Virus record (IMG/VR): IMGVR_UViG_3300021425_004462
Coordinates: 58,060 to 122,059 of that record
Length of the DNA stretch: 64,000 nucleotides
Origin: a virus
Direction: 5' to 3' (one strand)
The position numbers and the translations under genes were made by a program. A model generated the notes under the pieces. That model had not been told where the DNA came from and did no database searches. It worked only from the letters and a program-made list of their open reading frames with translations. Positions within the stretch are counted from its first letter, which is position 1; each line of letters begins with the position of its first letter. Below, one piece after another: positions 58,699-64,000 of the stretch.

Positions 58699-60108
58699 AT
58701 GCCAAATAAAAGAATTTCAGAACTTAAAGAAACAGAGGACTTGTCCGCTGATTTAGCTTCTCATCATTTTCCCTACCATCCCTTTAATGGATTATTAAAT
58801 GAAGATGACGCAGATATTGAATTTTTGGTAGCTAGAGAAAAAATAAACAATTACAAGATAAACTACCAAGATCTTAAGACATCTATTTTAGATCACTGTG
58901 TGTTTATGACTGGCCAGCAATTAATTAGCGGACAAAAGATTTTTACAGATGTATGTACATTCCAAAGTAGAATACAAACAAATGAATTAATAGACATAAC
59001 TCTAACTGGAGACATTAGTGGCGTTGCAATTGTAGGAAAAACTGGGCTACTTGAAAACTTAAGAGTAGGAAAACCTTTTTACAACCGGGAATTAGACGAA
59101 TCTACATATAACTTACATATATCAGGCGACACCTTGATGCTTGGAGACGCTCGCCATACAGGCCATTTTAGGCAAGAAGGGGACTATTTAAGGTTTGGAG
59201 ATTCGGTGCAGGTTGGAAATACAGTTATCTCTGGAAGCAAAACTTACACGAAAGACATTTATGCAGACGAAAAAATTATACACCTGAATGATGAAGATAC
59301 ATTTTTGCAGTTAAGTAATGAGTCTATTAATTTTACCGCTGGAAGTTCAACAAAAACAGAATTAAAAGAAGATTCTCAAGAAATTATATTTCATACTAGC
59401 GACGAGAATCAAGCTCAAATCAATAACACAGGTTTTTTATCCATAAATAATACGGACCCAATTGGAGAACTTTCGGTAAGCGGAAAAGCTTTTGTAGAGA
59501 ATATATACAGATATGATGATTTTTATAAAACGTTCTATAGAGTATATGGAGGTGATAGCGAAACGGTTTCATTCAAGCACGAAATAAGGCCCGGAAATAA
59601 TGAGTATAAAATAAATTTACCAAAGACTTTTTTCGATAAACCAATTATTTCATTAAGTCTCGAGGGCCATAACGTTCCTCCTATTTCCGTTCCAATTATT
59701 AAAAATTTAACAGAATATAACTTAAATATAAAGTTCCCCCTTGAGATTACCTCAAGAGGCTACTTGCTACACGTGACAGCGCTGGAAACATCATTTAAAA
59801 AAGGGAGTAATTATGTTCACTACGAGAAGTACCCGCACGTATCATGTGAAGACGCAGGCTCAAATAGACTTGCAATCCAAAGATTTAAAACTCCATTCTC
59901 AAATCCAGGCAAAGAATTTAAAATCAATTTTCCAATTGATTTCGGAACAACGCCAATTGTGTCGGCAACAATAGAAGGCGTAGATACAAATGTAGAATAT
60001 GCCATATTTAGTGTAAACAAAAGTTCATATAACATTATTTTTTCAAAAGAGATAAACAACTTCACAGTACATACTTTTTCAAGCATATCAGGATATAAAG
60101 GTTTTTAA
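58699..60108 (+). CDS. virion fibre protein (short paralogue)
   Basis: A 469-residue protein. Residues 1-65 are an N-terminal segment (MPNKRISELKETEDLSADLA) shared in outline with the next gene (NRISNLGRKQYLKSHG). Residues 65-150 (YKINYQDLKTSILDHCVFMTGQQLISGQKIFTDVCTF) are a conserved base. Short beta-repeat units follow (YNLHISGDTLMLGDARHTGH, RFGDSVQVGNTVISGSK, IIHLNDEDTFLQLSNESINFTAG), then two 95-residue C-terminal modules (VSFKHEIRPGNNEYKINLPKTF; FSNPGKEFKINFPIDF), each ending in a P-x-V/I-S-x-x-x-E-G strand. Likely a trimeric tail-side fibre or adhesin. It ends 3 bases before its larger paralogue. Confidence 0.68.
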   Translation: MPNKRISELKETEDLSADLASHHFPYHPFNGLLNEDDADIEFLVAREKINNYKINYQDLKTSILDHCVFMTGQQLISGQKIFTDVCTFQSRIQTNELIDITLTGDISGVAIVGKTGLLENLRVGKPFYNRELDESTYNLHISGDTLMLGDARHTGHFRQEGDYLRFGDSVQVGNTVISGSKTYTKDIYADEKIIHLNDEDTFLQLSNESINFTAGSSTKTELKEDSQEIIFHTSDENQAQINNTGFLSINNTDPIGELSVSGKAFVENIYRYDDFYKTFYRVYGGDSETVSFKHEIRPGNNEYKINLPKTFFDKPIISLSLEGHNVPPISVPIIKNLTEYNLNIKFPLEITSRGYLLHVTALETSFKKGSNYVHYEKYPHVSCEDAGSNRLAIQRFKTPFSNPGKEFKINFPIDFGTTPIVSATIEGVDTNVEYAIFSVNKSSYNIIFSKEINNFTVHTFSSISGYKGF

Positions 60109-60111
60109 TAA

Positions 60112-62349
60112 ATGAACAAAGATAATAGAATTTCAAACTTAGGTCGCAAGCAATACTTGAAATCTCATGGGCTTGAACCTTTTCCTCATGCAGCTATGCC
60201 TGTAAGCCAAGGAAATGAAGATGATGACATATTATTTCTTATTACAGAGTCTGGATCTCATAACGAAAAGATAAACTACAAAAACCTAAAAGCTTCAATA
60301 TTGGACAATTCAGTTATGCTAACGGGCAACCAATTAATTAGCGGAGAAAAAACTTTTGCAGATGTATGTACATTCCAAAGCACAATTTATACAAATGAAA
60401 TTATAGATATTGTTCAAACTGGAGATATAAGTGGAAATATTTTTGTTGGACAAACAGGTCTTTTTCAAAAAGTGGGTATTGGTTTAGATTTTTCGGACAG
60501 AAGGGAAATGAAACCTGTTTATAGCGACTTTCCAGACTCGGCCGAAGGTTATATTTCATATGATTTTGGAGGAGGAATAAAAACAGAAACACTTTCGGAC
60601 CAAAATTTCAATTTTTACTTAACTTCTGGAGACGGACAAGACTATACGTTTACTGGAGATGCCAATGGAAAGGATCCAAGTTTATCGGTAAAACAGGGAG
60701 ATCAACTCAATTTTATTAATGAAATAGGTGCTCATCCATTATCAATTCAAGATTATAATGGTAATATAATTGCCCAAGAAAACCAAGGGCTAACGACTTT
60801 CAATGCGTCTGCTACCGGAGCGTATTTTTATCAATGTACGGTTGTCGGTCACCAACAAATGAGCGGGAATATACTGGTAACCAAAAATTCTTTTGGAGGA
60901 ATAGACTTTAATGCTCCAGGAGAACCAAATTTAAATACCTCTATATCTTCTTATGAGATTTATGAGCCGCTAGGATATTATAACTCAAATACGCCTGAGT
61001 CTCAATTAAACAACGACACCACAAACATAACTCTTGATGGTCACTTATTGCACCCTGATGATGTTCATAGGGAAATGAGGGGAGCTTGGTTAGAAATTAA
61101 TTTCGAAAAACCTTTTCATTATAAAGGATTTTCAATATATAGAAAAAACATAGAAAGCGCAGCCCAAAACCTTAAAGTAGTTGCCTCTAATGACGGAAAA
61201 AGCTGGCGCACAATTCATAAAGTTTCAGGGTTAAGCCAATCGGATTATAACGACGAAAACACTGAAACCTCGTTTTCTTTAAATCAGTATATCGAAGATA
61301 AATATTCAAAATATAGGCTTGTCGGAGAAAAAACATTTTCAAAACCATTTTGGGATTTAGGTCATTTTAGTTTTTCTGGTGTTTTGATAAAAGAGTTTAC
61401 CACAATTAAAGAACCTCAATATACACTCCATGTTTCAGGAGAGTCATGTTTTATAGGAAACACAACACATACAGGATTTGCGAGGCATAGCGGAGATTTA
61501 TATAGAATAGGCAATTTCACACAAACAGGAAATTCATTCATTGACGGAAGCGAAAAAATCACTGGAAACATTTTTCTCGGAAAAACATTGTACCATTTAA
61601 ATGATGAAGATACTTTTATTGAATATACTGACGATAAAATAGACATAACGGCAGGTAGCGGAACAAAAATCGTATTAAATGAGATAGAAGATAACAAAAT
61701 TCAATTTTTTACAAACGGAAAAGAACAAGCAAGGATTGACCAGAGTGGATTCTTCGGGATAAATACAACAACTCCCTTCGCAGAGCTTTCTGTGACTGGG
61801 GACGCATACCTAGAATGTTTATTCACGACTGGTCTAGACGGACAATGGGAAAGAGTATATGGAGGAAGCGATGAAACAGTTTCATTTACCACCGAATTAA
61901 ATAAAGGCTCAGATTCTTACAGAATTAATTTTCCAAAAACTTTCGGAGAAGAACCATCAGTTACTTTATCTCTAGAAAATAATGAAGGTGGACCTATTGT
62001 ACCATATTTTATTTCTGGAGTAAACTTGCACGAATACCACATAAACTTTGGTTCAAATTTATTAAATGATGGATATAAAATTCATACATCAGCTAGAGTA
62101 ACAGGGCAATCAGCAGTACACAAAACAAGAACTCAATCTTTTATTACAGAAGTTTCGGGGGGCAAGGATATTTATGAAATTGATTTTCCAGAACCATTTC
62201 ATACAGAGCCCGTAATTTCAACTGCGATAGAATCGAAAGACATACTAATACCTTATTTGGTTTCTGGAGTCAGTAAAAATTCCTACAATTTAATTTTCGG
62301 ACAACAGTTACCCACATCATGCAAAATACATACTCATGCAGTTCGTTAA
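60112..62349 (+). CDS. virion fibre protein with inserted cupredoxin and discoidin-like domains
   Basis: A 745-residue paralogue of the previous gene. The base (YKNLKASILDNSVMLTGNQLISGEKTF), the fibre repeats and the two C-terminal modules align with the 469-residue gene. The extra 275 residues (about 130-435) are inserted at one place. Residues 184-258 are a cupredoxin: H208 in GAHPLSI, C242, H247 and M250 in YQCTVVGHQQM fit a blue-copper site. Residues about 310-425 resemble a discoidin (F5/8 type C) domain: AWLEINFEKPFHYKGFSIYRK, then LKVVASNDGKSWRTIHKV. These may bind host surface sugars. It is the second gene of the late fibre operon. Confidence 0.72.
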   Translation: MNKDNRISNLGRKQYLKSHGLEPFPHAAMPVSQGNEDDDILFLITESGSHNEKINYKNLKASILDNSVMLTGNQLISGEKTFADVCTFQSTIYTNEIIDIVQTGDISGNIFVGQTGLFQKVGIGLDFSDRREMKPVYSDFPDSAEGYISYDFGGGIKTETLSDQNFNFYLTSGDGQDYTFTGDANGKDPSLSVKQGDQLNFINEIGAHPLSIQDYNGNIIAQENQGLTTFNASATGAYFYQCTVVGHQQMSGNILVTKNSFGGIDFNAPGEPNLNTSISSYEIYEPLGYYNSNTPESQLNNDTTNITLDGHLLHPDDVHREMRGAWLEINFEKPFHYKGFSIYRKNIESAAQNLKVVASNDGKSWRTIHKVSGLSQSDYNDENTETSFSLNQYIEDKYSKYRLVGEKTFSKPFWDLGHFSFSGVLIKEFTTIKEPQYTLHVSGESCFIGNTTHTGFARHSGDLYRIGNFTQTGNSFIDGSEKITGNIFLGKTLYHLNDEDTFIEYTDDKIDITAGSGTKIVLNEIEDNKIQFFTNGKEQARIDQSGFFGINTTTPFAELSVTGDAYLECLFTTGLDGQWERVYGGSDETVSFTTELNKGSDSYRINFPKTFGEEPSVTLSLENNEGGPIVPYFISGVNLHEYHINFGSNLLNDGYKIHTSARVTGQSAVHKTRTQSFITEVSGGKDIYEIDFPEPFHTEPVISTAIESKDILIPYLVSGVSKNSYNLIFGQQLPTSCKIHTHAVR

Positions 62350-62368: not shown

Positions 62369-64000
62369 ATGATATCTAAACATATATTTAATTCGGATGT
62401 AATAAGTGGAAACAATTTATGGATTGATGAGATACGTTCAACCGGAGATACGGTATATATTGATGACAATGTAAATATTTCAAATAATGTCGATATATCA
62501 GGTAATGTTTTTATCAAAAATAATTTAACAGTAAAAGGCAGCACGACTACACTCGATACAATCACAGTGACAGTTGATGACCACAATATTGAATTAGGTT
62601 CTGTAGACAATCCTACAAATACTACCGCTGAAGGGGGTGGTATAACCCTAAAGGGCTCTACAGATAAAAAATTCACATGGGGATCTACCTTCAATGAGTC
62701 ATGGGAATCAAGCGAAAATTTAGGGGTTGCAGATGGAAAATATATATTTGCAGATAAAATTAGAGCAAGAGATTCTGCGGGATTATTTTTAGAAGACGAT
62801 GGTGGAAACGGAATTTTTGTAAAAGATGGAGGCAATGTTGGCGTTGGTACAACAAATCCAGGAGAGAAGTTAAGAATTGAAGAGTCAAACTCTGGAGTGC
62901 ATTTAATGGCAAGATTTCAAGATGTTTCTAATTCTGATTTAGTAAAAGGTATTCGAATAAATAAAAGAAACAAAGCAAACTCACAAAACACTTTTTTTGA
63001 CCTATCTATTGACGCAGAAGAAAATAAAATAGGAATAGGATTAGGAAACAATTCAGCAGAGCTTTCAAATGGAAAAGCAGATTTATCTAATTCAGAGATA
63101 GTTATAGATAGCTTTGGCCGCGTAGGGATTGGAGCTACAAGCCCTAGTCACGAATTAACTATTGGATCATCAACTGATCCTGGAACAACTGATGAAAGGT
63201 TAAAAATATTTAGAGGTGCGGACGATGCAGGTCAAAATCTTGAAATGGGATATAGAAGTATCACAGTGACTCGCGACTCAAATACATTAGCACAGCCACA
63301 ATCAACTTTCTCAATCAAGCAAAGAGGTAGTAATGGTGAAAGAACAGAGATATTCGTCGACTCCATGGGTAATTTAGGTATTGGCACCATAGTCCCAAGC
63401 GGAAAGTTAGATGTTAACGGAGACATTAAATTCAATGGAGACATACTTCCTTATACATCCGAAACCTTTGATATAGGGTCTGCTTCAAAAAAAGTTAGAG
63501 ATATATACTTAAGCGCATCATCCTTGCATATAGGTAACCAAGATATTTCTGTAGACGCAGAGGAAACGCTTCTACTTCCTTCCGGAGTTAGGATTGGATA
63601 CGTAGGGGGCCCTAAATTTTCCACAGACGGAACGGATCTTTCATTAAGTTCATCACTATCTTTAGCAAATATGCTATCTGTTTCAAAAGCCGCAACTTTA
63701 TCAAACACCCTTTCCGTTGCAGGAGCTACTACGCTTTCAGATTCTTTATCTGTCGCCGAAAACGCTACTTTATCGAAAGCTCTTTCGGTTGGAGGGGCTG
63801 CTTCCGTTGCAGGAGCTACTACGCTTTCAGATTCTTTATCTGTCGCCGAAAATGCTACTTTATCGAAAGCTCTTTCGGTTGGAGGGGCTGCTTCCGTTGC
63901 AGGAGCTACTACGCTTTCAGATTCTTTATCTGTCGCCGAAAATGCTACTTTATCGAAAGCTCTTTCGGTTGGAGGAGCTACTACGCTTTCAGATTCTTTA
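62369..64000 (+). CDS. long tail fibre with tandem repeats (partial)
   Basis: Open from the ATG at 62369 to the window edge (544 codons visible; C-terminus missing). The N-terminus MISKHIFNSDVISGNNLWIDEI leads to a beta-helical run (VYIDDNVNISNNVDISGNV) and LTVKGSTTTLDTITVTVDDHNIELGSVDN, typical of cyanophage-type tail fibres. Two repeats of the VGVGTTNPGEKLRIEE / VGIGATSPSHELTIGS type follow and a third, LGIGTIVPSGKLDVNG. From residue about 430 the protein becomes a 12-residue repeat, SVAGATTLSDSL / SVAENATLSKAL, grouped in 30- or 24-residue units. A late-type motif begins 14 bases before the start. Very likely the long side fibre with a triple-stranded beta stalk. Confidence 0.8.
   Translation, partial: MISKHIFNSDVISGNNLWIDEIRSTGDTVYIDDNVNISNNVDISGNVFIKNNLTVKGSTTTLDTITVTVDDHNIELGSVDNPTNTTAEGGGITLKGSTDKKFTWGSTFNESWESSENLGVADGKYIFADKIRARDSAGLFLEDDGGNGIFVKDGGNVGVGTTNPGEKLRIEESNSGVHLMARFQDVSNSDLVKGIRINKRNKANSQNTFFDLSIDAEENKIGIGLGNNSAELSNGKADLSNSEIVIDSFGRVGIGATSPSHELTIGSSTDPGTTDERLKIFRGADDAGQNLEMGYRSITVTRDSNTLAQPQSTFSIKQRGSNGERTEIFVDSMGNLGIGTIVPSGKLDVNGDIKFNGDILPYTSETFDIGSASKKVRDIYLSASSLHIGNQDISVDAEETLLLPSGVRIGYVGGPKFSTDGTDLSLSSSLSLANMLSVSKAATLSNTLSVAGATTLSDSLSVAENATLSKALSVGGAASVAGATTLSDSLSVAENATLSKALSVGGAASVAGATTLSDSLSVAENATLSKALSVGGATTLSDSL
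63710..64000 (+). repeat. tandem 90-bp and 72-bp fibre repeats
   Basis: Near-identical units begin (aggagctact) at 63721, 63811, 63901 and 63973, so steps are 90, 90 and 72 bp and the array runs off the window edge. The 90-bp unit is two 12-residue repeats plus a six-residue SVGGAA; the 72-bp step lacks those six residues. Confidence 0.9.

What the first reader, a model, noticed from the sequence alone, without database searches (positions are those of the whole stretch)
60500..61400. Blue-copper-like (cupredoxin) domain inserted into a phage fibre
H208, C242, H247 and M250 form the ligand set of a type-1 copper site (C-x4-H-x2-M). The insert of about 275 residues, cupredoxin plus a discoidin-like domain, is absent from the adjacent paralogue, which is otherwise alignable. 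So the module came in at one point in the fibre. Possible uses: metal-dependent binding to host, structural cupredoxin, or interaction with host outer-membrane electron-transfer proteins.
Basis: partly seen in the sequence, partly recalled or inferred. Interest (0 to 1): 0.7.

Follow-up and report, generated by a model that had tools for sequence, protein, structure and literature searches.

The report
Blue-copper domain in a phage fibre
A tail-fibre protein of an uncultured virus carries an inserted domain with the complete metal site of blue copper proteins, and the same kind of domain, with its metal-holding residues almost perfectly kept, sits in tail and neck proteins of hundreds of phages, mainly marine cyanophages, so many ocean viruses may carry copper on their tails.

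Summary
H208, C242, H247 and M250 lie in a ~103-aa insert (window ~60583-60891) of a 745-aa fibre-like protein. A model from 48 relatives has mean pLDDT 90.5, and its best structural matches are type-1 copper proteins (2dv6, Z 11.3). Profiles built without the window score the domain at 51-113 bits; its paralogue and 200 shuffles give nothing.

The '275-residue module acquired at one point' is not supported. Two sister orthologues (66-67% identity) have the discoidin-like domain but no cupredoxin, so there are two modules.

The domain is not peculiar to this phage. A cyanophage member finds relatives in 323 of 50,697 phage records, all cyanophage or marine, mostly in 'baseplate wedge tail fiber connector' proteins. 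In 84 non-redundant viral copies the four ligands are kept in 82; two copies lost Cys, second His and Met together. The nearest relatives (41-51% identity) are viral and share the C-x4-H-x2-M loop, in a T4-type neck protein and in large, probably beta-helical proteins. The same virus has a second cupredoxin outside the window. No paper in the library searched describes virion cupredoxins.

Best explanation: an exchangeable, copper-loaded surface module of tail adhesins. Copper binding and role are inferred, untested.

The parts
60112..62349 (+). 745-aa fibre-like protein carrying the domain: N-terminal part shared with the paralogue, cupredoxin, discoidin-like domain, stalk-like part, C-terminal part with weak H-type-lectin similarity
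   Evidence: ORF and translation; alignment with sisters and paralogue; Pfam
60583..60891 (+). inserted cupredoxin module, residues ~158-260, absent from sister orthologues L014 and L015
   Evidence: alignment A3; coordinates; AF2 model pLDDT 90.5; PDB matches
60733..60735 (+). H208, first copper ligand (in the conserved His-Pro)
   Evidence: His in 83 of 84 non-redundant viral copies
60835..60861 (+). ligand loop C242-x4-H247-x2-M250
   Evidence: all three kept in 82 of 84 copies
60901..61404 (+). discoidin-like (F5/8 type C) domain, residues ~264-431, also present in the sisters
   Evidence: Pfam E 8.3e-6, 26.4 bits against a cut-off of 28.2; present in L014 and L015
60564..60573 (+). left copy of the 10-bp direct repeat TTTTGGAGGA at the insert's edge
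   Evidence: 4 of 1595 control pairs as long; position read from the sequence
60891..60900 (+). right copy of TTTTGGAGGA at the insert's edge
   Evidence: position read from the sequence
58699..60108 (+). adjacent paralogous fibre protein (469 aa) without cupredoxin and discoidin

Best explanation
The insert is a genuine cupredoxin domain with an intact type-1 copper site, one member of a large family of virion-borne cupredoxins that move between tail, fibre and neck proteins of aquatic, mainly marine, phages. Shown: fold (predicted), ligand set and its conservation, clean presence/absence between sister viruses, recurrence in unrelated virion proteins. Inferred: the protein is made without metal in the host cytoplasm, takes up copper when released, and the metal ties the ligand loop to the beta-sandwich, giving a rigid, stable exposed module. 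On the fibre it works beside the discoidin-like and lectin-like domains as an auxiliary adhesion/docking surface toward the host envelope. I rate 'copper site intact' at about 0.95, 'copper bound in virions' at about 0.75, and 'main role is copper-stabilised adhesion/decoration' at about 0.55.
For: Ligands as numbered. Profiles without the window: 51, 79 and 113 bits; paralogue and shuffles silent. AF2 mean pLDDT 90.5; VIA-align best chain 2dv6 N-terminal cupredoxin Z 11.3, rmsd 2.8, 96 aligned, then rusticyanin 9.3 and auracyanin A 8.5. HMMER pairs the four ligand positions with those of 2dv6. In 84 viral copies at 70% identity, first His 83, Cys 82, second His 82, Met 82; in the 57 copies that fit the Cys-His-Met search pattern, the first His, not in the pattern, is present in 57 of 57; two exceptions lost Cys, second His and Met together. 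All 16 further phage copies fetched by similarity alone show all four (its filter printed 14, the other two read TNHPF and TVHPF). Sisters without the insert. Carriers: baseplate wedge tail fibre connectors, a T4-type neck protein with a laminin-G domain, long proteins I read as beta-helical. BFVD matches are cyanophage tail and baseplate proteins.
Against: Copper binding has not been measured for any member. Ligand distances were not available from the model. Ligand-less copies exist (L076, L022), so the fold can serve without metal. The host and habitat of this virus are not known. No receptor is known, and adhesion is argued from the neighbouring domains, themselves weak Pfam matches.
Confidence: 0.55

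Rival explanations
1. Copper as bait: the copper-loaded domain docks on host outer-membrane copper-uptake or copper-binding proteins, a copper counterpart of the iron 'Ferrojan horse' proposal.
For: Metal-site conservation far above the rest of the domain; concentration in cyanophages, whose hosts need copper for plastocyanin (general knowledge); iron in phage tail fibres has been proposed to be used in this way (PMC11705849).
Against: No receptor identified; in type-1 sites the metal is largely buried, so the ion itself is a poor bait (general knowledge); copies also sit on a neck protein, far from the host-facing tip.
Confidence: 0.15
2. Electron transfer: the domain exchanges electrons with host surface redox proteins or detoxifies reactive oxygen at the virion surface.
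For: Nearest solved relatives are electron-transfer cupredoxin domains.
Against: The domain is embedded singly in varied virion proteins; no partner redox gene was tied to it; no reason was found for a virion to carry current.
Confidence: 0.08
3. Structural cupredoxin without metal: only the beta-sandwich is used, as Ig-like domains are in other phages.
For: Ligand-less copies exist in the family (L076 and L022); the domain stands where other decorating domains stand.
Against: 82 of 84 copies keep all four ligands while overall identity falls to about 25-30%, and the ligands are among the most conserved columns.
Confidence: 0.15
4. Another metal (zinc or silver, for example) is the physiological ligand of the same site.
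For: Cupredoxin sites can bind other soft metals (general knowledge); cytoplasmic assembly would expose the site to zinc first (inference).
Against: The His-Cys-His-Met set is the copper set of the solved relatives found.
Confidence: 0.07

Closest known systems
N-terminal cupredoxin domain of Hyphomicrobium denitrificans nitrite reductase (2dv6, 6tfo)
   Same: Fold (Z 11.3, 27% identity over 96 residues) and the four aligned ligand positions
   Different: That is a domain of an enzyme, with H-x4-M in place of H-x2-M; here a module of a virion protein
Amicyanin, plastocyanin, auracyanin and rusticyanin (type-1 copper proteins)
   Same: His...Cys-xn-His-xm-Met site and beta-sandwich; amicyanin also has His-x2-Met
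   Different: Those are electron carriers; loop lengths differ (two to four residues between Cys and His is usual in blue and red cupredoxins, PMC4059628)
Unnamed cupredoxin domain of cyanophage gp9 'baseplate wedge tail fiber connector' and related proteins (phrog_677, phrog_9158, phrog_27200)
   Same: Homologous domain with the same four ligands in virion proteins
   Different: Cyanophage copies mostly have C-x2-H-x2-M; the window belongs to the C-x4-H-x2-M group
Iron-binding HxH motifs of phage tail fibres (T4 gp37; phage R22Y)
   Same: Metal carried in a phage fibre; proposed Trojan-horse use (PMC11705849)
   Different: Unrelated fold, metal and site; the iron sites of T4 gp37 are seen in a crystal structure, here copper is inferred

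Membership tests
Cupredoxin fold with type-1 copper site | Greek-key beta-sandwich | tested here: met
   AF2 mean pLDDT 90.5, nine strands; Foldseek and VIA-align best matches all cupredoxins
Cupredoxin fold with type-1 copper site | Ligand set His...Cys-xn-His-xm-Met with the last three in the loop before the last strand | tested here: met
   H208, C242, H247, M250; model strands 80-86 and 95-101 flank the loop
Cupredoxin fold with type-1 copper site | Copper bound, with the spectrum of a type-1 site | not testable with these tools
   needs purified protein
Cupredoxin fold with type-1 copper site | Ligand distances compatible with copper | not testable with these tools
   no coordinates are given out for the model
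Pfam PF00127 Copper-bind (plastocyanin/azurin) | Score above the curated cut-off | tested here: not met
   15.7 to 16.6 bits against 21.2; so not filed in PF00127
   79 bits, E 3.5e-24; A1 without window 51 bits; independent PHROG match phrog_9158 E 2.9e-4
Discoidin / F5_F8_type_C (PF00754) | Score above the curated cut-off | tested here: not met
   26.4 bits against 28.2 for the domain alone, E 8.3e-6; called discoidin-like only

The most novel reading that the evidence does not exclude
Marine phages widely carry copper-loaded type-1 sites on their tails, and use the metal in host recognition (docking on host copper-handling proteins), so that virions are both copper-dependent for infection and a pool of bound copper in the sea.
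Probability: 0.15. Interest if true: 0.88.

Novelty: new variant of a known kind. Interest (0 to 1): 0.62.

Why it matters
If copper is bound, hundreds of sequenced phages, mostly of Synechococcus and Prochlorococcus, carry blue-copper sites in baseplate or fibre proteins that are annotated only as structural. That would give virions a copper content, make infection testably copper-dependent, extend the iron-in-tails debate to copper, and warn that plastocyanin-like hits in viral metagenomes may be virion domains and not metabolic genes.

Tried and rejected
One joint 275-aa acquisition: rejected by sisters L014/L015. Gain versus loss: the paralogue lacks both modules, so the direction of the cupredoxin change is not polarised; the 10-bp direct repeat at both edges (4 of 1595 control pairs) fits insertion or deletion. 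Unusual loop: rejected, many Streptomyces and Burkholderia genes give the same C-x4-H-x2-M spacing. Plasmids: no match. Stenotrophomonas phage hits: strand opposite to the annotated genes, read as chance. Tree: the window groups with the viral C-x4 group at 84/98, few columns. Copper mentions in three cyanophage papers are microscopy grids. Reading the long L050/L055 proteins as beta-helical is mine; Pfam gave only weak matches.

Full report
What is there. The window is C1:58060-122059 of an uncultured virus record of 122,059 bases. ORF 60112-62349 (+) encodes a 745-aa protein. H208, C242, H247 and M250 are present as reported. Tail genes of lambda type (J-like, minor tail proteins) lie upstream; the next gene's relative in L014 ends in a Peptidase_S74 chaperone, so the surroundings are those of tail fibres. 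That the protein itself is a fibre is inferred from this setting and its repeats.

Is it a cupredoxin? Single-sequence searches are weak (Pfam Copper-bind E 0.021, below cut-off; PDB 2dv6 E 0.0074). Profiles settle it: built from other viral copies without the window they score the domain at 51, 79 and 113 bits, and none of 200 shuffles nor the paralogue. A profile of the close group finds 2dv6 at E 6.1e-7, amicyanin and auracyanin; the broad profile finds amicyanin at E 3.6e-6. AF2 on a 48-row alignment gives mean pLDDT 90.5. VIA-align puts 2dv6 (Z 11.3, rmsd 2.8, 96 aligned) and rusticyanin (9.3) on top; values near 8 below that are less telling.

Is the copper site under selection? From 202 domains found in 168 fetched sources, 84 representatives at 70% identity keep the first His in 83, Cys in 82, second His in 82 and Met in 82. 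Some of those were fetched with a Cys-His-Met pattern; in the 57 that fit the pattern the first His, not part of it, is always there. Of 27 not forced by the pattern, 25 have all four, and the two exceptions lack Cys, second His and Met together. Sixteen more phage copies fetched by similarity alone have all four by reading. Identity between the window and the other groups is 23-36%, so this is strong conservation. Two facts limit it: copies are related, and conservation of a site is not proof of bound copper.

How did it get here? Orthologues in L014 and L015 (66-67% identity, same flanking genes) run FGGGIK-S-GILDF where the window has FGGGIK, then about 103 residues, then FGGIDF. They keep the discoidin-like domain. 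The neighbouring paralogue lacks both. So the cupredoxin and the discoidin-like domain are separate modules. A 10-bp direct repeat lies at both edges. Whether the cupredoxin was gained by the window lineage or lost by the sisters is open.

How widespread? A cyanophage gp9 copy finds 323 of 50,697 phage records, all cyanophage or marine by name; a second seed finds 98, including one actinobacterial phage and a T7-like cyanophage (P-GSP1). The nearest relatives of the window are uncultured viral proteins at 41-51% identity with the C-x4-H-x2-M loop, with one C-x3 variant: long proteins I read as beta-helical (L050, L055) and a T4-type neck protein with a laminin-G domain (L036, PF11649 E 1.6e-36). 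The same virus has a second cupredoxin, of C-x2-H-x2-M type, at C1:6711-6935, at the start of a 608-aa protein.

What does it do? The carriers differ (fibre, baseplate connector, neck, S8-peptidase-like), the neighbours are often binding-type domains, and no redox partner was tied to it. I therefore prefer a copper-stabilised exposed adhesion/decoration module (0.55 for role, 0.75 for copper). Docking through copper, electron transfer, metal-free use and another metal are the rivals.

What is known? Searches of an open-access library of 5.39 million papers gave no paper on cupredoxins in phage virions; titles and abstracts were read, and only a few of the papers were opened. Automatic superfamily labels may exist elsewhere. 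Iron in phage fibres is the nearest known idea. The loop spacing is ordinary among cellular cupredoxins and Cys-x4-His lies in the usual range.

Limits. No metal, spectrum or distances were measured. Host and sample are unknown. The genome scan for cellular relatives used one pattern and stopped at its limit. PHROG and record annotations are as their authors wrote them.

Noticed in passing
G000:C1:6624-8450 (L301 3625-5451), outside the window: Second cupredoxin of the same virus (C-x2-H-x2-M) at the N-terminus of a 608-aa protein, next to an 881-aa protein that shares its C-terminal part but not the cupredoxin.
   Followed up: partly
L036 1038-3125 and L048: A T4-type neck protein (PF11649) with a laminin-G-like domain and a cupredoxin inserted.
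   Followed up: partly
323 phage records, for example PP110484.1 and NC_008296.2: Cyanophage 'baseplate wedge tail fiber connector' proteins carry an unannotated cupredoxin with a full type-1 ligand set.
   Followed up: partly
L076:3535-3831 and L022:5651-5986: Cupredoxin copies that have lost Cys, second His and Met together, beside intact copies in the same protein.
   Followed up: no
window 62369-64000: Highly repetitive fibre protein (repeats of TTLSDSLSVAENATLSKALSVGGA) running off the window's end.
   Followed up: no
window 1067-25153: Three glycosyltransferase-like genes and a HAD-hydrolase-like gene in the virus, possibly for virion or host glycan modification.
   Followed up: no
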